Below are positions 6,551 through 14,450 of a DNA stretch of 64,000 nucleotides, piece by piece. The DNA lies in the NCBI RefSeq assembly GCF_003860135.1, contig NZ_RQYN01000009.1, positions 1 to 64,000 of the forward strand, given 5' to 3'. This DNA comes from Tannerella forsythia. Lineage in GTDB: Bacteria > Bacteroidota > Bacteroidia > Bacteroidales > Tannerellaceae. Position numbers and translations under genes: made by a program. Position 1 is the stretch's first letter. Each line of letters starts with the position of its first letter. The notes under the pieces were generated by a model that was not told where the DNA came from, searched no databases, and saw only the letters and a program-made list of their open reading frames with translations.

Positions 6551-7297
6551 ATGAAAATAGCATTGATAGGCTACGGGAAGATGGGGAAAGCCGTCGAAGA
6601 AGCTGCCCTGAAACGGGGACATGAGATCGTTTCGATTATCGATGTCGACCATCATGACGCCTTCCGTTCGGAGGCTTTTCGAAGCGCCGACGTGGCCATC
6701 GAATTTACAAGACCGGATACCGCGTTCGATAATTACATGCAGTGCTTTGCGGCCGGTGTGCCCGTCGTCAGCGGAACGACCGGATGGCTCGACCGGCTCG
6801 ACGAAGTCAAAGCGATCTGTCGTAACGAAGGACGGACTTTCTTCTATGCATCGAACTTCAGCATCGGCATGAACCTGTTTTTTGCCGTAAATGCTTATCT
6901 GGCCAAACTGATGAACCGCTTCACCGACTACGACGTACAGATCACCGAAACGCATCACATCCATAAGTTAGACGCACCGAGCGGGACCGCCATCACGCTG
7001 GCCGACGATATCCTCAAGGCTATCGACCGCAAGACACACCGTGTATCGGGCAAGGCCGAACATCCCGAAGAGTTGGCCGTGCTGTCCGTCCGCGAAGGAG
7101 AAGTGCCGGGCATCCACGAGGTGGAGTACGATTCGGAGACGGACTTCATCCGTATCTGCCACAGTGCGAAAAGTCGTGCCGGTCTGGCACTGGGCGCCGT
7201 GCTTGCGGCAGAGTTCACCGTGGGAAAAACAGGCTTCCTCGGAATGAACGATTTACTTCAAATCTCTCTCCCTAGAATACAAAAAAATAACGAATAA
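6551..7297 (+). CDS. dapB: 4-hydroxy-tetrahydrodipicolinate reductase
   Basis: DapB reduces 4-hydroxy-tetrahydrodipicolinate with NAD(P)H in the diaminopimelate/lysine pathway, supplying cell-wall precursor in the cytoplasm. The 248-residue protein has the N-terminal dinucleotide-binding GYGKMGKAV (residues 7-15) and the SGTTGW loop (74-79). It also has the active-site signature ETHHIHKLDAPSGTA (133-147), with the catalytic histidine and lysine. It is the first long gene of a tight operon: lepB begins five bases after its stop. Confidence 0.97.
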   Translation: MKIALIGYGKMGKAVEEAALKRGHEIVSIIDVDHHDAFRSEAFRSADVAIEFTRPDTAFDNYMQCFAAGVPVVSGTTGWLDRLDEVKAICRNEGRTFFYASNFSIGMNLFFAVNAYLAKLMNRFTDYDVQITETHHIHKLDAPSGTAITLADDILKAIDRKTHRVSGKAEHPEELAVLSVREGEVPGIHEVEYDSETDFIRICHSAKSRAGLALGAVLAAEFTVGKTGFLGMNDLLQISLPRIQKNNE

Positions 7298-7302
7298 TAA
7301 CA

Positions 7303-8712
7303 ATGAAAAAAATTACAACACGCCAATGGATCAGTTTCGGTATCTGGGCCACCCTCTACACACTGTTCTGCATCTGGATGGAAAACTGGTGGATGCTCTT
7401 CGGTCTGATTGTACTGGTCGATATCTTCCTCACGAAATTCATCCCATGGGGCGCATGGAAACGCTCGAAGAATAAGAGGGTGCGCGAAACGCTTGAATGG
7501 ATCGACGATATTGTGTTCGCGCTCGTAGCGGTCTACCTGATTAATTTGTTTGTCTTTCAGAATTACCAAATCCCGACCCCCTCGCTCGAAAAGACATTAT
7601 TGGTAGGAGATTACTTGTTCGTCAGTAAGCTAAGCTATGGGCCGCGTGTACCGAACACCCCGATTTCGTTCCCACTCGTACAAAATACCTTCCCGATACT
7701 GAACTGCAAGTCGTACCTCGACTGGCCGCGATGGGGGTATAAACGTGTAAAAGGCTTCGGACAAGTGAAACGCAACGATATCGTCGTGTTTAACTTCCCC
7801 GCCGGCGATACGGTGGCGCTCAAATGGCAAAATCCCGACTATTACTGGCTGGTAAACGAGGCCGGACGGGAAGCGGTACACACGAATAAAGATTACTATG
7901 GCGACATCATCTATCGTCCCGTAGATAAACGAGAAAATTACGTAAAACGTTGTGTCGGAATGCCGGGCGACTCACTCGCAATCCGTAACAATGCACTGTA
8001 CATTAACGGAGAAAAACAGAAAGACCCGGCCCGGATGCAGCTCTGCTACTTTGTCGAAACAGACGGAGCGATGCTCACCGAAGAGCAGTTCCGCAAGATG
8101 GATATCAGCAAGAGTGACCGCAAATTCGTTTCCGTCCCGACATCGGACGAAGAAAAGTTCTATTACGAATATCTGCCGTTTCTCGGCTTCACTTCGACGG
8201 ACGGACGATACAACCCGATCTATCGCCTGCCGCTGACGCAGGAGGCGCTGGAGATTATGAAGAAAATCCGGTCGGTGAAGCAGATTAAAGTAGAGCCCGA
8301 ACAACTGGGAGGTACGACTTATCCCGCCGGTTACCGCACAGGGTGGACGCGCGACAATTACGGCCCCATCTGGATTCCGAAGAAAGGCGCGACGATCGAG
8401 CTGAACGAGCGCAACCTCGCGCTCTACAGCCGTTGCATCGGCAGTTATGAAGAGAATACATTGGACGTACGGGGCGGCCAGGTATTCATTAACGGACAGC
8501 CGGTTACGACCTATACGTTCAAATACGACTACTACTGGATGATGGGCGACAATCGGCACAACAGCGCCGACAGCCGTTCGTGGGGCTTCGTGCCCGAAGA
8601 TCATATCGTCGGGAAGCCGATCCTCATCTGGCTCTCGCTCGATAAAGATCGCAGCCTCTTCAATGGCGGCATCCGCTGGAGCCGGATGTTCCGTACGGTA
8701 CGCGCCGACTGA
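7303..8712 (+). CDS. lepB: Signal peptidase I (S26 family), catalytic form
   Basis: This inner-membrane protease cleaves signal peptides from exported precursors with a Ser/Lys dyad. The 469-residue protein has N-terminal membrane segments (about 10-45 and 67-86). Box B is QIPTPSLEKTLLVGD with the likely nucleophile Ser94. Box D is YVKRCVGMPGDSL with the general-base Lys215, and box E is YWMMGDNRHNSADSR. It is much longer than the roughly 324-residue E. coli enzyme because of insertions between the boxes (about 105-210 and 235-375), as seen in Bacteroidales. It lies between dapB and a second S26 homologue. Confidence 0.95.
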   Translation: MKKITTRQWISFGIWATLYTLFCIWMENWWMLFGLIVLVDIFLTKFIPWGAWKRSKNKRVRETLEWIDDIVFALVAVYLINLFVFQNYQIPTPSLEKTLLVGDYLFVSKLSYGPRVPNTPISFPLVQNTFPILNCKSYLDWPRWGYKRVKGFGQVKRNDIVVFNFPAGDTVALKWQNPDYYWLVNEAGREAVHTNKDYYGDIIYRPVDKRENYVKRCVGMPGDSLAIRNNALYINGEKQKDPARMQLCYFVETDGAMLTEEQFRKMDISKSDRKFVSVPTSDEEKFYYEYLPFLGFTSTDGRYNPIYRLPLTQEALEIMKKIRSVKQIKVEPEQLGGTTYPAGYRTGWTRDNYGPIWIPKKGATIELNERNLALYSRCIGSYEENTLDVRGGQVFINGQPVTTYTFKYDYYWMMGDNRHNSADSRSWGFVPEDHIVGKPILIWLSLDKDRSLFNGGIRWSRMFRTVRAD

Positions 8713-8736: not shown

Positions 8737-9579
8737 ATGGCACGCCGGCTGATACGATACTTGACAGGCTTAGTGATCGCCGCCCTGATCGCATTAGGGC
8801 TGCATCTCTTCTGCGTCGGATCGTACAGCATCTCGACCCGTTCGATGAGCGACGTGCTACAAGAAGGCGACCGGGTGCTGGTGAATAAAATCCGCACCGC
8901 CTCGAACCCCGGACGCGGCCGGATCGTCCTGTTCAGAGGTCATCGGACACAAGGCCGTCAAGCGCCTCTCTTCTTGAGTCGCTGCGTGGGGATGCCGGGC
9001 GACACCGTCATCGTCGGCGAAGACGGCTTTCGCATCGCCGGACGTCTGTACCCGAATCTTCCGACAGCCGAAAATATGTTTCGCATCCGCAAAAATATCA
9101 AGGAACCGTTGATGGAATTGATGCGCGATCTGAACATCCCCTACCGTAGTGCCGGAGAAGATTCGCTAAGCCTGACCTTTCGCCTGACAAGCCGCGAAGA
9201 ACTTCTTCTTCGTGACAAACTCCCGCAGTTGCCGGATATCGAATGGCTTCCCGGCGAGCGTCGCCGCCACACGTTCGTGATTCCGGGCAAAGACCTCCTT
9301 TACCGAATCGATTCGATTTCCCTGCTCATGTGTCGTGAGGCCATCCTCGCAGAATACGGTAACCGGGTATCGATTCGGAATGGAGAGCTTTATGTAGACG
9401 GGAAATATACCCGTTACCTCTTCTTCCGAAAGAACTACTATTGGATGTTATCGGATAATGAAGCTGAGGCGGTCGATTCGCGACACTTCGGGCTGATTCC
9501 GGAAACCCGAATCGAGGGCAACGTATGGTTCCGCTGGTACAGCAACGACCGGAAGCGCCTGTTTAAACGCATCGAATAA
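8737..9579 (+). CDS. Second S26 signal-peptidase homologue lacking the catalytic lysine
   Basis: This 280-residue paralogue follows lepB directly. It has one N-terminal membrane segment (about 7-27), a box B with Ser36 in ISTRSMSDVLQEGDRVLV, and a box D reading FLSRCVGMPGDTV. The residue aligned with the catalytic lysine is Ser81 (codon agt, with cgc tgc gtg following). Box E is also weakened: YWMLSDNEAEAVDSRHFG, with serine for glycine in the usual GDN. The fold seems preserved, but a standard Ser/Lys dyad is not possible. It may be a non-catalytic partner of LepB, a protease using another base, or a decaying copy. The intact 280-codon frame argues against decay. Confidence 0.85.
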   Translation: MARRLIRYLTGLVIAALIALGLHLFCVGSYSISTRSMSDVLQEGDRVLVNKIRTASNPGRGRIVLFRGHRTQGRQAPLFLSRCVGMPGDTVIVGEDGFRIAGRLYPNLPTAENMFRIRKNIKEPLMELMRDLNIPYRSAGEDSLSLTFRLTSREELLLRDKLPQLPDIEWLPGERRRHTFVIPGKDLLYRIDSISLLMCREAILAEYGNRVSIRNGELYVDGKYTRYLFFRKNYYWMLSDNEAEAVDSRHFGLIPETRIEGNVWFRWYSNDRKRLFKRIE

Positions 9580-9582
9580 GCG

Positions 9583-10257
9583 ATGAGCGCCGTCTGCCTT
9601 TCCACCGCCTATTTGGCGCCTGTCAGCTACTATTGCAAACTGTATGCCTTCGATACCGTACGACTCGAAGCCTGCGAGAACTACCAGAAGCAGACCTACC
9701 GCAACCGCTGCCGGATCGCTACGGCCAACGGCATCCAAGAGTTGACCGTACCCGTCGAAAAATCGCCGACACCGAAAATCCTGACACGCGATGTCCGTAT
9801 CTCCGACCATGGGAACTGGCGCCATCTGCATTGGAACGCATTCGTCTCCGCCTATAACATGAGTCCTTTCTTCGAATATTATGCCGACGACTTCGCACCG
9901 TTTTACGAGAAGAAGTACACTTTTCTGATCGATTATAACGAGGCCTTGCAACACCTCATCTGCGACCTGATCGACCTGCGACCGCAAATCATCCGTACCG
10001 AAACGTACGAGACCAATCTCCCGAACGATTTCCGAAATGCCTTCCATCCGCGCCATCCGCACGACGATCCTTCTTTTCACCCTCAATCCTACTATCAGGT
10101 GTTCCGCGAAAAATACGGGTTCCTGCCCGACCTGAGCATCGTAGACCTGCTGTTTAACATGGGGCCCGAAGCGCTGCCGGTGCTCAGCGACTCATGCCGG
10201 CAGACCGATAATGCAGATCGGCCACTCTCTCCCCAAAAACAAGCGGCTTCCCGTTGA
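9583..10257 (+). CDS. WbqC family protein
   Basis: This 224-residue protein resembles the WbqC family, whose members are found in polysaccharide-biosynthesis loci and elsewhere. Family-like features are the opening STAYLAPVSYYCKLYAFD, the central NYQKQTYRNRCRIATANGIQELTVPVEK block, and the HWNAFVSAYNMSPFFEYYADDF segment. It begins three bases after the stop of the second signal-peptidase gene and ends the operon. It converges on porN across the 41-bp repeat array. The biochemical activity is not established for the family. Confidence 0.88.
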   Translation: MSAVCLSTAYLAPVSYYCKLYAFDTVRLEACENYQKQTYRNRCRIATANGIQELTVPVEKSPTPKILTRDVRISDHGNWRHLHWNAFVSAYNMSPFFEYYADDFAPFYEKKYTFLIDYNEALQHLICDLIDLRPQIIRTETYETNLPNDFRNAFHPRHPHDDPSFHPQSYYQVFREKYGFLPDLSIVDLLFNMGPEALPVLSDSCRQTDNADRPLSPQKQAASR

Positions 10258-10272
10258 ATTGACCGGAGAAAA

Positions 10273-10570
10273 GTTAAAATTCCTGAACGGATTTATTAGC
10301 CGCGTCGATGATTGGTTAAAATTCCTTTCGGAATTTATTCGGCACAAATTGCTTCGTTAAAATTCCTGAACGGATTTATCTCCTGCAAATTGAGTCGTTA
10401 AAATTCCTGAAGGGATTTATTTCCCGCAAACTGGGTGGTTAAAATTCCTGAAGAGATTTATCTCCCACAAATTGGGTGTAATAAATCACAGTTGTGATTT
10501 ATCTCCCGCAAATTGGGTGTAATAAATCACAGTTGTGATTTATCTCCCACAAATTGGGTGTAATAAATCT
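10273..10570. repeat. 41-bp hairpin tandem array between wbqC and porN
   Basis: Seven units and a partial eighth start at 10273, 10315, 10356, 10397, 10438, 10479, 10520 and 10561, with a 41-bp period (the first is 42). Each unit has a short inverted repeat and a linker like TCTCCCGCAAATTGGGTG. The arms differ between units but stay complementary. AAATTCC/GGAATTT is perfect in unit 2 and AAATCAC/GTGATTT in units 6 and 7; other units have one or two mismatches or G-U pairs. The array fills the gap between convergent genes, so it could end transcription from either side. There are no unique spacers, so it is not CRISPR. Confidence 0.9.
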
Positions 10571-10596: not shown

Positions 10597-11709
10597 TTAT
10601 CTTCTTCGCCGCACGCTGCGTGTTGCAGCCGGCTTTTCTGCTTTTGTCTTAGGCGCTTTGGCCACCTTTTGCTTCGGTGCTGCTTTTGCCTTTTTCGTCT
10701 CTTTTTCTTTCTCGTTGGTCGCTTTTTCCTTTACAGACGACCGACGTCCTGCTTTTCCGGCTTTCTTCTTACCGGTTGCCGCCTTTGCCTGCGTGGTCGT
10801 ATCGGGTTGAAACCACAACGCTTTGTTGAACGCGACCAGCTCGCCCTCGATTTTCTTTTGCTCGCGTTCCAGCGAGTCGGGCGTAGGACAATAAGCCTGC
10901 AACGGAATATTCAGCAGATTCTCGGTCTTGATAATCTTGCCGTCGAACATGCGGCGACGGAAATAATCGTCGATCGTAAACGTCTTCGCGTTGTTTGTGT
11001 TCGACGTCATGATATACGTGTTCGATACGTAAGGACGGACATCTTCGTAAACGACCCAGAACATCGGCGAACGCTCCGTACCCATATCGCCTTCGTAGAA
11101 GATAATCGGACTGATGGCCAATGTCTTTACATCGTACAGAGAATTATTCTGATCAAAATACCATGCTTCTTTCACGTAGAAAGCTTTGACTTCGCCCGAA
11201 GGAACGTCGCTTTCGTTGATGACGAAACGCTGCCGCCCATCCCGCCCGGGCACCGTCTCATACATGATCGAGAAACGGTCGAGAACGGATTTGAAATCGA
11301 CGAGATGATCTTCGTCGAACGCTTCGTAACCGTCCAGATATTCATAAGCTTTCAGCTTTCCCTCGCTCACCAGTTGGAATATCGTAGAGAAGAGATTCAT
11401 CGAACCGTTCCTCGGATTCACCGGATAATAGAGGGGGGCATTTTTCTCTTCCAGCATGTTCAGCTCGCGGTATATCACACGCATCCATCGCGCGTTGCCG
11501 ATATTCTGCGTCAGTTGCTCGTTAAGATGCTGCGCACGTACGGTAAGCTCCGGCAAGCCACTTTCGTTCTGGTTTTGCCGGTTACGATCGCCGCCCCGGC
11601 TCATCTGCGGTGTACGACGCGTATTGCCCCCATCCTGCGCTTGCAGCATGACGCCCGACAAGAGCGTCAGCACACTTATTATAACCGTAAAAAAAACAAT
11701 CCGTTTCAT
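10597..11709 (-). CDS. porN: Type IX secretion protein PorN/GldN
   Basis: PorN/GldN is a periplasmic protein that associates with the PorK lipoprotein rings of the T9SS. The 370-residue protein has a signal peptide (cleavage near VMLQAQ) and the family core with ARWMRVIYRELNMLEEKNAPLYYP and NLFSTIFQLVSEGKLKAYEYLDGYEAF. The last 65 or so residues are a low-complexity tail very rich in Lys, Ala and Arg, ending RSVRRRR. It is the last gene of the porPKLMN cluster, and the order supports the identification. Confidence 0.95.
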   Translation of the reverse strand: MKRIVFFTVIISVLTLLSGVMLQAQDGGNTRRTPQMSRGGDRNRQNQNESGLPELTVRAQHLNEQLTQNIGNARWMRVIYRELNMLEEKNAPLYYPVNPRNGSMNLFSTIFQLVSEGKLKAYEYLDGYEAFDEDHLVDFKSVLDRFSIMYETVPGRDGRQRFVINESDVPSGEVKAFYVKEAWYFDQNNSLYDVKTLAISPIIFYEGDMGTERSPMFWVVYEDVRPYVSNTYIMTSNTNNAKTFTIDDYFRRRMFDGKIIKTENLLNIPLQAYCPTPDSLEREQKKIEGELVAFNKALWFQPDTTTQAKAATGKKKAGKAGRRSSVKEKATNEKEKETKKAKAAPKQKVAKAPKTKAEKPAATRSVRRRR

Positions 11710-11739
11710 CTCTTATCTTTACTTGTTATGCTCTACAAT

Positions 11740-13305
11740 TTATTGAATGATTACATCGAAAACGACCGGGTCTTGCTCCACTCCCTCGGGAGTAACGGAA
11801 ACCGACTTGATATAAAACTGTTTTCCGCGTTGCAGATTGCGGATATAGCTCTTTTGTCGGTCGGTAAACGAGTTGTTCTGCGATACCTCGATCAGCGAGT
11901 TCCCCATCGAATCGGAATATGTCAATGTAAAATTCTTCACCCGGCATTCGATGTCGAGGATGCCGTCGTCGATAGCCGACATGATACCGGTCGCTTCGAC
12001 GAGGGCACGTTTCGAAATACGGCCTCCGGTAAACTTCTTCGTCACTCCGTTGGCGTCCGTATATAAAATGTACGGTTGCGCCTTGGGCAACTGACGCACC
12101 TTGAACGGATAATCACCGATCTTGGTCTGCACGCCTCCGATACGGGCCGTTACGGAAATCACGGCTTCCTTGGCATTCATATTCGGAACGGCATATCTTT
12201 TCCCGTTCTCCGTACGGATCTGTCCGTTCGTCATCGTGGCTGTCACATCGCCGCTGGCCACGCCGGGTACGGCAATATCGATCTCGTTCTCGCGCACACG
12301 TCCGGCATACAGCACACGCATCAGCGCCGATGCTACCGTCGCACTTTTGGCCGATACGGAATATTCGCTGTCGAAGTAGTACGGATCTTTGCCCGGCACC
12401 TTCAGATAACCCTGAATAGGGAATGTTCCGGTCGAACCCGTTCCGACCGTATAGATGCCTTCGTAGTCGCTCACCTCTTTTTCACTCCCTCTGGGGCCGA
12501 TAAAAAGCTGCGGACGTTGCGTCGAATCGACAGCTGACAGTACGATATTCGCCTGATAAGGAGTTCCGCTCATCACGATCTGACTCTTGGGAACGACTTG
12601 CGCTACGATCTTATTCACGCGGTAATCGCCCACATCGACACTTTTCGCAATATCTGCCAACACTTCGCCTTCTACATAACGAATATCATTTTGATATTTC
12701 GTCAAGATCGTAACGGCAGCTGCCACAGGAATATTTTCAAACATAATCGACTCCCACGAACGAATTTCTACTCCCGTCTTAGACGGCACCTTCGTGTTCA
12801 GTGCACGCTGCAACATATTGCGCAAATCGGGATCGTCGACTAAGGCGACCACATTCGCACGATACGTTTCCAAGCGCTCTCTCAACTTTTTCCCTTCCCC
12901 GACAATAGGCGCCGTCATCACTTCCGACGAGGCATCCATGTTCTCCTTATTCTCAATCTCATTGACATCGCCTTCTTTTCCGTCGGCTTCCTGTACAATC
13001 CTGATTTTAAGATTCTGTAAGTAGTCGACCAGTTCGTCCGATTGTCGTTTGACATCGATCGCCTTACGGTACCATTCTCCCACTTTCGTAGGATTTTCCG
13101 CATTGGCAGCCTCCATGGTTTCCAACGCTTTTTTGTTCCGTACAGACGCTATCGTAGCGGATTCACGCAGTCCTCTTTCCACCAAATCAAATCCGTTCAG
13201 TACCTCCGATGAATAATTTAATGCCATCATGGCGATGAACACCAAATACATCAGGTTGATCATTTTCTGACGCGGTGAATTGGGATTATTTGCTATTCCT
13301 GCCAT
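11740..13305 (-). CDS. porM: Type IX secretion protein PorM/GldM
   Basis: GldM/PorM is anchored in the inner membrane by one N-terminal helix and spans the periplasm as a dimer. It links the PorL motor to the PorKN ring. The 521-residue protein opens with the family signature AGIANNPNSPRQKMINLMYLVFIAMMALN (helix about residues 17-35), then long helical and beta domains. It lies 30 nt upstream of porN and downstream of porL, as in other T9SS clusters. Confidence 0.96.
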   Translation of the reverse strand: MAGIANNPNSPRQKMINLMYLVFIAMMALNYSSEVLNGFDLVERGLRESATIASVRNKKALETMEAANAENPTKVGEWYRKAIDVKRQSDELVDYLQNLKIRIVQEADGKEGDVNEIENKENMDASSEVMTAPIVGEGKKLRERLETYRANVVALVDDPDLRNMLQRALNTKVPSKTGVEIRSWESIMFENIPVAAAVTILTKYQNDIRYVEGEVLADIAKSVDVGDYRVNKIVAQVVPKSQIVMSGTPYQANIVLSAVDSTQRPQLFIGPRGSEKEVSDYEGIYTVGTGSTGTFPIQGYLKVPGKDPYYFDSEYSVSAKSATVASALMRVLYAGRVRENEIDIAVPGVASGDVTATMTNGQIRTENGKRYAVPNMNAKEAVISVTARIGGVQTKIGDYPFKVRQLPKAQPYILYTDANGVTKKFTGGRISKRALVEATGIMSAIDDGILDIECRVKNFTLTYSDSMGNSLIEVSQNNSFTDRQKSYIRNLQRGKQFYIKSVSVTPEGVEQDPVVFDVIIQ

Positions 13306-13361
13306 TTAATCATTCTTATCAATGGTTATATCGTTGTTCAAATCAATCAACATTTCGTTAT

Positions 13362-14450
13362 TTATCGCTGATTGGGATAAGGAGGTTGTTGCGCGTAGCC
13401 TTGCGGCGGATAACCACCCTGATACGGCGGTTGCTGAGGCGGATACATCGTCGCTCCGCCCGGCATATTAACCGTCATGGCTTGTAACAGACGTCCGTAA
13501 ACCTGATTCAGCTGTGCCAAGAGCTGTGCCATCCGTTCGTTCTCGTTACGGAAAGCCGTGCTGTCCATCACGGAATTGTCGTACATGTCGCGGATACGGC
13601 TCAATCCCGCGTTGATCTGCTGGATCGTATCCATCTGCGAGCGCAGACCGCTCAAATGCACGGAATAAAATTCGTTTAATCCCGAAAGACTCTGGTTCAA
13701 CTGCTCCATCTGCTGCACATATCCGATGGTCTGTTTTTCCGAATGTTCATTCTTCGATCCGGCAATCATCTCGCACGAATGAACGAGCGAGTCGGAGACT
13801 TCACTCAACGAATTCGTCACGACATTGAAACGTTCCAGATTGGCTGTAACACTCGATATTTGTTCGATATAGGTCTTTGTCGCATCCGTCAGATCGGCCA
13901 TACGGGAAATCTGCTCGGCCGCATCGCCCAATTTCTGGATGCTGTTGGCCAAGTTCTTCGTATCTTCTTCCGATACATTCAATCCCATCGCCGCCATACC
14001 GAGTTCGGCATTCTGAGCCGCCGCACGGGCATTCCCCGTCAGCGCACCGCCACCGGACTGAGCCCCGGACAAATCACCTAACACAATGGTTCCGCCTCCC
14101 AAGTGTCCTCCACTACCTCCGATGATCACCTGCCCTTCACCGTTCCCGGCACCTCCGCTACTGAAGTCAGGGCGGTCTAACGGATTCTTCGACTTCAAGA
14201 CCGGAAAGACTTCTTCCCAATGATATTCGTTGGCAGGACGCTCAAAACCGGACACAAAGAATACAATGGCTTCAACAATCATCGCCACCGTAAGTATTTC
14301 GTTGCCATATTGCAAGTGCAGAATCTTGAACAACGCCCCGATGATCACAATCGAAGCTCCCCAGCTATACACGAAATTCAGTGTCCGCTTTCCGTTCTCG
14401 GACGAAAGAAACATTTCGATCCGGTTCTTATATCTTCTATATTTTCCCAT
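13362..14450 (-). CDS. porL: Type IX secretion motor protein PorL/GldL
   Basis: PorL/GldL forms the proton-driven inner-membrane motor with PorM. The 362-residue protein has two membrane helices near its N-terminus. The first contains lysine (GASIVIIGALFKILHLQYG). The second contains glutamate (TVAMIVEAIVFFVSGFE), the acidic residue thought to carry protons. A Gly-rich stretch (about 90-130) leads to a long coiled-coil-like cytoplasmic region (150-330) and a Pro/Gln/Tyr-rich tail. It lies between porK and porM. Confidence 0.95.
   Translation of the reverse strand: MGKYRRYKNRIEMFLSSENGKRTLNFVYSWGASIVIIGALFKILHLQYGNEILTVAMIVEAIVFFVSGFERPANEYHWEEVFPVLKSKNPLDRPDFSSGGAGNGEGQVIIGGSGGHLGGGTIVLGDLSGAQSGGGALTGNARAAAQNAELGMAAMGLNVSEEDTKNLANSIQKLGDAAEQISRMADLTDATKTYIEQISSVTANLERFNVVTNSLSEVSDSLVHSCEMIAGSKNEHSEKQTIGYVQQMEQLNQSLSGLNEFYSVHLSGLRSQMDTIQQINAGLSRIRDMYDNSVMDSTAFRNENERMAQLLAQLNQVYGRLLQAMTVNMPGGATMYPPQQPPYQGGYPPQGYAQQPPYPNQR

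What the first reader, a model, noticed from the sequence alone, without database searches (positions are those of the whole stretch)
8737..9579. Signal peptidase paralogue with serine in place of the catalytic lysine
Box D reads FLSRCVGMPGD where the adjacent LepB has YVKRCVGMPGD, and box E has SDN instead of GDN. The nucleophile region (Ser36) is kept and the frame is intact. Type I signal peptidases of bacteria need the lysine, while eukaryotic ER enzymes use histidine. This suggests a non-catalytic partner for LepB or a new catalytic arrangement.
Basis: partly seen in the sequence, partly recalled or inferred. Interest (0 to 1): 0.6.

Follow-up and report, generated by a model that had tools for sequence, protein, structure and literature searches.

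The report
Dead signal-peptidase copy beside lepB
Next to its working signal peptidase, this Tannerella-like bacterium keeps a second copy that lost its cutting residues long ago but has been preserved as an intact protein across much of the order Bacteroidales, so it probably does a non-cutting job in protein export.

Summary
ORF 8737-9579 (280 aa) is an S26 protein directly downstream of an intact lepB. Ser81 sits where E. coli LepB has its catalytic Lys, Ser36 aligns with the nucleophile, box E reads SDN, and the Lys-supporting Ser is Ala245. The genome has only these two S26 genes.

It is not a one-off and not a new catalytic dyad. In 65 aligned relatives (nearly all Tannerellaceae) the Lys column is S, G or N, never K or H. 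The nucleophile column needs about 15 changes between Ser and not-Ser. Across 316 Bacteroidales S26 proteins, 202 keep the dyad (box E Gly in 201) and 113 do not (Gly in 7). Degenerate copies sit beside lepB in 22 of 81 sampled Bacteroidales families and in 0 of 19 same-class loci outside the order. Fold residues and cleft hydrophobics are kept, and dN/dS is 0.09-0.13, so it is a maintained pseudoenzyme.

Best reading: an ancient lepB paralogue that became a membrane-anchored, non-cleaving, peptide-binding protein, probably working alongside LepB. The LepB partnership is inferred from position only; a rate-covariation signal vanished with envelope controls. Closest known: Streptococcus SipA.

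The parts
6551..7297 (+). dapB (4-hydroxy-tetrahydrodipicolinate reductase), start of the conserved gene string
   Evidence: Pfam DapB_C 119.5 bits, DapB_N 62.1 bits
7303..8712 (+). lepB, the only other S26 gene in the genome, dyad intact (S, K, GDN, S)
   Evidence: PF10502 140.2 bits, TIGR02227 131.5 bits; motifs; whole-genome PF10502 search
8737..9579 (+). S26b: catalytically degenerate signal-peptidase paralogue, 280 aa
8740..8811 (+). single N-terminal membrane-anchor helix, residues 2-25
   Evidence: helix 2-25 in the AlphaFold2 model, block pLDDT 89-94; hydrophobic by sequence
8824..8862 (+). box B, residues 30-42, YSISTRSMSDVLQ; Ser36 aligns with the E. coli nucleophile
   Evidence: column is S 26, A 25, K 5 and seven other letters among 65 relatives
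8971..9003 (+). box D, residues 79-89, FLSRCVGMPGD; Ser81 (AGT) in place of the catalytic Lys
9451..9486 (+). box E, residues 239-250, SDNEAEAVDSRH; Gly to Ser239, supporting Ser to Ala245; structural D247, S248, R249 kept
9583..10257 (+). wbqC-like gene, last of the dapB-lepB-S26b-wbqC string
   Evidence: PF08889 122 bits; same order in 77 of 79 loci

Best explanation
8737-9579 encodes a pseudo-signal-peptidase. An early tandem copy of lepB in Bacteroidales lost the Ser-Lys dyad but kept the S26 fold, the hydrophobic residues that line the peptide cleft, and one membrane anchor. The protein most likely sits in the inner membrane facing the periplasm and binds signal peptides or nascent exported chains without cutting them. 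It probably works next to LepB, as a substrate-presenting or tuning partner. Shown here: no Lys or His at the base position, an unconserved nucleophile, kept fold and cleft residues, purifying selection, strict position beside an intact lepB. Inferred: peptide binding. Least certain: physical partnership with LepB.
For: Dyad loss across relatives. Box E Gly is lost together with Lys: Gly in 201 of 202 dyad-intact proteins and 7 of 113 degenerate ones; in SPase-I this Gly leaves room for the Lys side chain (PMC4049620). The S36 column needs 15 Ser/non-Ser changes on the tree of 65. Fold residues are kept in 113 degenerate proteins: R147 in 112, D281 in 109, R283 in 108. Cleft residues are kept: M92 in 105, L96 in 95, I87 as I or V in 105, I145 as L, I or V in 105. 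dN/dS is 0.085 and 0.129 against the two nearest species. The AlphaFold2 model, pLDDT 84.8, matches signal peptidases in Foldseek ranks 1-20 and SipA at rank 21. Gene order dapB-lepB-S26b-wbqC in 77 of 79 loci. Degenerate copies separate from LepB on a 115-row tree.
Against: Nothing tests peptide binding or a LepB complex directly. Rate covariation with LepB (partial r 0.71) fell to 0.19, interval across zero, once Gld envelope proteins were added. Adjacency can simply be left over from tandem duplication. Four Tannerella genomes have dapB-lepB-wbqC with no S26b, so it is dispensable at least there. Ser36 is kept in this species.
Confidence: 0.6

Rival explanations
1. S26b is a non-cleaving peptide-binding scaffold for a separate envelope process (SipA-like), not a LepB partner.
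For: SipA has the same kind of dyad loss, a kept cleft, and a role in pilus assembly rather than in signal-peptide cleavage (PMC4049620); the profile of the family matches SipA in the PDB (E 4e-07). Rates do not tie S26b to LepB specifically.
Against: Position is beside lepB in nearly every locus read, with wbqC on the other side in the Tannerellaceae and related families. No sortase or pilus gene was among the immediate neighbours identified in the window.
Confidence: 0.25
2. S26b is a regulator or inhibitor that limits LepB, for example by sequestering signal peptides or capping LepB.
For: Same genomic evidence as the partner model; many pseudoproteases regulate active relatives (general knowledge).
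Against: No specific evidence; the direction of effect cannot be read from sequence.
Confidence: 0.12
3. S26b is an active protease with a new catalytic arrangement, for example Ser36 alone or with His250.
For: Ser36 is kept in this species and in 26 of the 65 aligned sequences; His250 is present in 57 of 65.
Against: Ser36 is replaced by A, K, T, G, N, Q, I, H or R in 39 of 65 with about 15 switches on the tree; the supporting Ser and box E Gly are gone too. No conserved Lys except Lys51, which active enzymes share. His250 is kept in proteins whose Ser36 is Ala or Lys, so it is not there to activate a Ser.
Confidence: 0.05
4. It is a decaying pseudogene of a duplicated lepB.
For: Catalytic residues lost; it evolves faster than LepB (mean distance 1.02 against 0.38); absent in some relatives.
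Against: Intact frames in the same-genus copies, dN/dS 0.085-0.13, deep conservation across families.
Confidence: 0.03

Closest known systems
Streptococcus pyogenes SipA (PDB 4n31; PMC4049620)
   Same: Signal-peptidase fold, membrane anchor, dyad lost, box E Gly and supporting Ser replaced, cleft kept; no detectable protease activity reported for SipA.
   Different: SipA is in a Gram-positive sortase-pilus cluster and has Asp and Gly at the dyad; S26b is beside lepB in Bacteroidales, has mostly Ser or Gly for Lys and a variable nucleophile position, and carries a larger middle region.
Bacteroidales LepB (type I signal peptidase, S26A), here 7303-8712
   Same: Homologous S26 core, box D and E frame, neighbouring gene.
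   Different: LepB is about 470 aa with a longer N-terminus and an intact dyad; S26b is 280 aa with one anchor helix, no Lys and no supporting Ser.
Eukaryotic ER signal peptidase SEC11 (Ser-His type)
   Same: S26 family with the Lys replaced.
   Different: SEC11 has His at the base position (established knowledge); none of 65 aligned relatives has His there.
Paralogous non-catalytic subunits of processing proteases, such as mitochondrial MPP-alpha (from memory, a lead only)
   Same: An inactive paralogue kept beside an active processing protease.
   Different: Unrelated protein family; complex formation is known there and untested here.

Membership tests
Type I signal peptidase (S26A), as an active peptidase | S26 homology and fold | tested here: met
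   PF10502 94 bits, TIGR02227 99.9 bits; Foldseek ranks 1-20 are signal peptidases
Type I signal peptidase (S26A), as an active peptidase | Nucleophile Ser in box B | tested here: inconclusive
   Ser36 is present in the window, but only 26 of 65 aligned sequences keep it
Type I signal peptidase (S26A), as an active peptidase | General-base Lys in box D | tested here: not met
   Ser81; K or H in 0 of 65
Type I signal peptidase (S26A), as an active peptidase | Box E Gly and Lys-supporting Ser | tested here: not met
   Ser239 and Ala245; each of Gly and Ser is kept in 201 of 202 dyad-intact proteins
Type I signal peptidase (S26A), as an active peptidase | N-terminal membrane anchor | tested here: met
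   Helix 2-25 in the model, hydrophobic by sequence
Type I signal peptidase (S26A), as an active peptidase | Cleaves signal peptides | not testable with these tools
   needs an assay
ER-type Ser-His signal peptidase (S26B, SEC11) | His at the Lys position | tested here: not met
   S 47, G 17, N 1 of 65
SipA-type pseudo-signal-peptidase | S26 fold without a working Ser-Lys dyad, cleft kept | tested here: met
   SipA 4n31 matched by profile, E 4e-07
SipA-type pseudo-signal-peptidase | Encoded in a sortase-pilus cluster | tested here: not met
   Neighbours are dapB, lepB and wbqC
SipA-type pseudo-signal-peptidase | Common descent with SipA as an already inactive protein | not tested
   SipA was not put on the tree; the phyla differ and Bacteroidales lepB is a plausible local source

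The most novel reading that the evidence does not exclude
Many Bacteroidales have a two-protein signal peptidase: catalytic LepB plus a paralogous non-catalytic subunit that binds and presents signal peptides, a bacterial counterpart of paired active/inactive processing proteases.
Probability: 0.33. Interest if true: 0.75.

Novelty: new variant of a known kind. Interest (0 to 1): 0.52.

Why it matters
Type I signal peptidase is an antibiotic target and is usually thought of as a single-protein enzyme in bacteria. A widespread, selectively maintained inactive paralogue beside lepB would mean that export processing in gut and oral Bacteroidales has an unrecognised component. It also passes the NCBIfam 'signal peptidase I' equivalog cut-off, so genomes are likely to annotate it as an active enzyme. 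The phylum has an unusual rule for what follows the signal peptide (Gln at the new N-terminus, PMC10653852), which gives a concrete thing to test.

Tried and rejected
New catalytic dyad: rejected on the variable nucleophile column. Lys51 as replacement base: rejected because all 202 intact enzymes have it. Pseudogene: rejected on dN/dS and intact frames. Mirror-tree evidence for LepB partnership: partial r 0.71 with DapB and WbqC as controls, not specific once GldL, GldM and GldN were added. Phylum-wide occurrence: 19 same-class loci outside the order show lepB without a degenerate copy, and one more distant genome has two intact S26 genes. Literature: no paper found in the held library on Bacteroidales pseudo-signal-peptidases; subscription papers and supplements could not be searched. 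A first family tally mislabelled some rows as intact because of de-duplication; it was redone.

Full report
WHAT IS THERE. The ORF 8737-9579 on the + strand is 280 aa from ATG to stop. It is an S26 protein: PF10502 94 bits and TIGR02227 99.9 bits against cut-offs of 22.9 and 47. It lies 24 bases after lepB (7303-8712) and 3 bases before a wbqC-like gene, with dapB upstream. A whole-genome PF10502 search of the source genome (3.3 Mb, 99.98% complete) finds only these two S26 genes, so LepB is the only protein of this family there with a dyad.

ACTIVE SITE. Aligned with E. coli LepB (Met-1 numbering), Ser36 matches S91, Ser81 matches K146, Ser239 matches G273 and Ala245 matches S279. So the base, the Gly that leaves room for it and the Ser that supports it are all gone. 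Asp247, Ser248 and Arg249, which active enzymes also keep, remain.

WHOSE GENOME. The nearest named relatives are Tannerella sp. S17M_Sa_42 (93% identity) and Tannerella forsythia ATCC 43037 (89%). The window is therefore from a Tannerella species close to T. forsythia (inference from identity; the genome itself is unnamed).

CLOSE RELATIVES. In the 28 same-genus sequences (window included) the Lys column is Ser in 10, Gly in 17 and Asn in 1; Ser36 is kept in 10. In an alignment of 65, nearly all Tannerellaceae, the Lys column is S 47, G 17, N 1 and the Ser36 column is S 26, A 25, K 5 and seven other letters; parsimony needs about 15 changes between Ser and not-Ser. A residue that switches this often while its surroundings stay fixed is not acting as a nucleophile (inference).

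THE WHOLE ORDER. I took lepB positions from 247 Bacteroidales genomes and read the surroundings of about 110 loci. With the named loci this gave 316 distinct S26 proteins: 202 with Ser and Lys, 113 without one or both, 1 not scorable. Box E Gly is present in 201 of 202 intact and 7 of 113 degenerate proteins; the supporting Ser in 201 and 12. R147, D281 and R283 stay in 108-112 of the degenerate set. In that set the nucleophile column ranks about 146th of 226 for conservation, while R147, D281 and R283 are within the first seven. Six degenerate proteins keep the Lys but lost the Ser, so the dyad has decayed in different ways. Many of the 113 are close relatives (mostly Tannerellaceae), so they are not independent events. 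At family level, 22 of 81 sampled families have a degenerate copy beside lepB, 5 have only an intact second copy and 54 have none. Families are anonymous codes, and some contigs end early, so the 22 is a lower bound.

HISTORY. On a 115-row tree built without the trait columns, degenerate copies stand apart from the LepB clade (3 changes of label; shuffled mean 32.7). Most fall in two groups; one small group (family f23) derives from a separate lepB duplicate. Several rows have long branches and the tree is a quick one, so a single origin is neither shown nor excluded. Outside the order, 19 same-class loci have lepB with no degenerate neighbour. This fits an insertion by duplication between lepB and wbqC within Bacteroidales, followed by losses: four Tannerella genomes have dapB-lepB-wbqC directly.

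IS IT FUNCTIONAL. dN/dS is 0.085 and 0.129 to the two nearest species, like wbqC (0.107, 0.129) and above lepB (about 0.035). Frames are intact in the same-genus copies found. The AlphaFold2 model (65 sequences, mean pLDDT 84.8, pTM 0.72) has one N-terminal helix (2-25) and a beta-rich body. Foldseek ranks E. coli and Staphylococcus signal peptidases 1-20 and SipA 21; whole-chain TM-scores are modest (0.35-0.39 by query), so the fold assignment leans on the sequence evidence as well.

HOW IT MOST LIKELY WORKS. Residues that line the peptide cleft in E. coli (M92, L96, I87, I145 and the aromatic at 85; placement from established knowledge of the E. coli enzyme) keep their character in the degenerate set, as in SipA, where the authors drew the same inference of peptide binding from a kept cleft and a lost dyad but could not detect binding in vitro (PMC4049620). 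I infer a membrane-anchored protein that binds signal peptides or exported chains without cutting. The position beside lepB suggests it acts with LepB. I tried to test this by rate covariation. With DapB and WbqC as controls the partial correlation S26b-LepB was 0.71. Adding GldL, GldM and GldN from the same genomes reduced it to 0.19 with an interval across zero, and GldN scored higher (0.45). So that line gives no specific support, and the LepB partnership rests on gene order alone.

KNOWN OR NEW. Inactive signal-peptidase-like proteins are known from Gram-positive bacteria (SipA; PMC4049620). I found no paper in the held library on such proteins in Bacteroidales, which is a limited search. 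I rate it a new variant of a known kind: same type of pseudoenzyme, different lineage, gene context and residue pattern.

CONFIDENCE BY STEP (my estimates). Not a Ser-Lys protease: 0.95. Not a protease at all: 0.9. Maintained by selection: 0.95. Binds peptides: 0.6. Acts with LepB: 0.5. Forms a stable complex with LepB: 0.33.

Noticed in passing
window 10273-10560: Tandem array of about six 41-bp units (GTTAAAATTCCTGAAGGGATTTATCTCCC...) just downstream of the wbqC-like gene.
   Followed up: no
window 8737-9579: The inactive copy passes the NCBIfam TIGR02227 'signal peptidase I' equivalog cut-off (99.9 against 47 bits), so automatic annotation is likely to call it an active enzyme.
   Followed up: yes
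L057, L061, L062, L063: Four same-genus genomes have dapB-lepB-wbqC with no S26b between.
   Followed up: partly
L088:2735-3781, L089:5198-6319, L125:1257-2231, L150:1880-3001, L090:4874-5776: Second S26 copies in other Bacteroidales families that keep the Lys but have lost the nucleophile Ser (K, R, M, R, G).
   Followed up: partly
L049, L055, L111, L120, L134: Families f8, f15 and f39 carry two full-length lepB-like genes in tandem, both with intact dyads.
   Followed up: no
L058, L059, L060, L064: Some same-genus genomes carry extra short S26 proteins (282-347 aa) away from lepB with the dyad intact.
   Followed up: no
L045, L124: Family f23 has three S26 genes at the lepB locus, one active between two degenerate ones.
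   Followed up: no
window 10597-14450, minus strand: ORFs that look like GldN, GldM and GldL (gliding / type IX secretion) lie next to the operon; named from sequence and order, not from a family search. GldN-like rates covary with S26b (partial r 0.45).
   Followed up: partly
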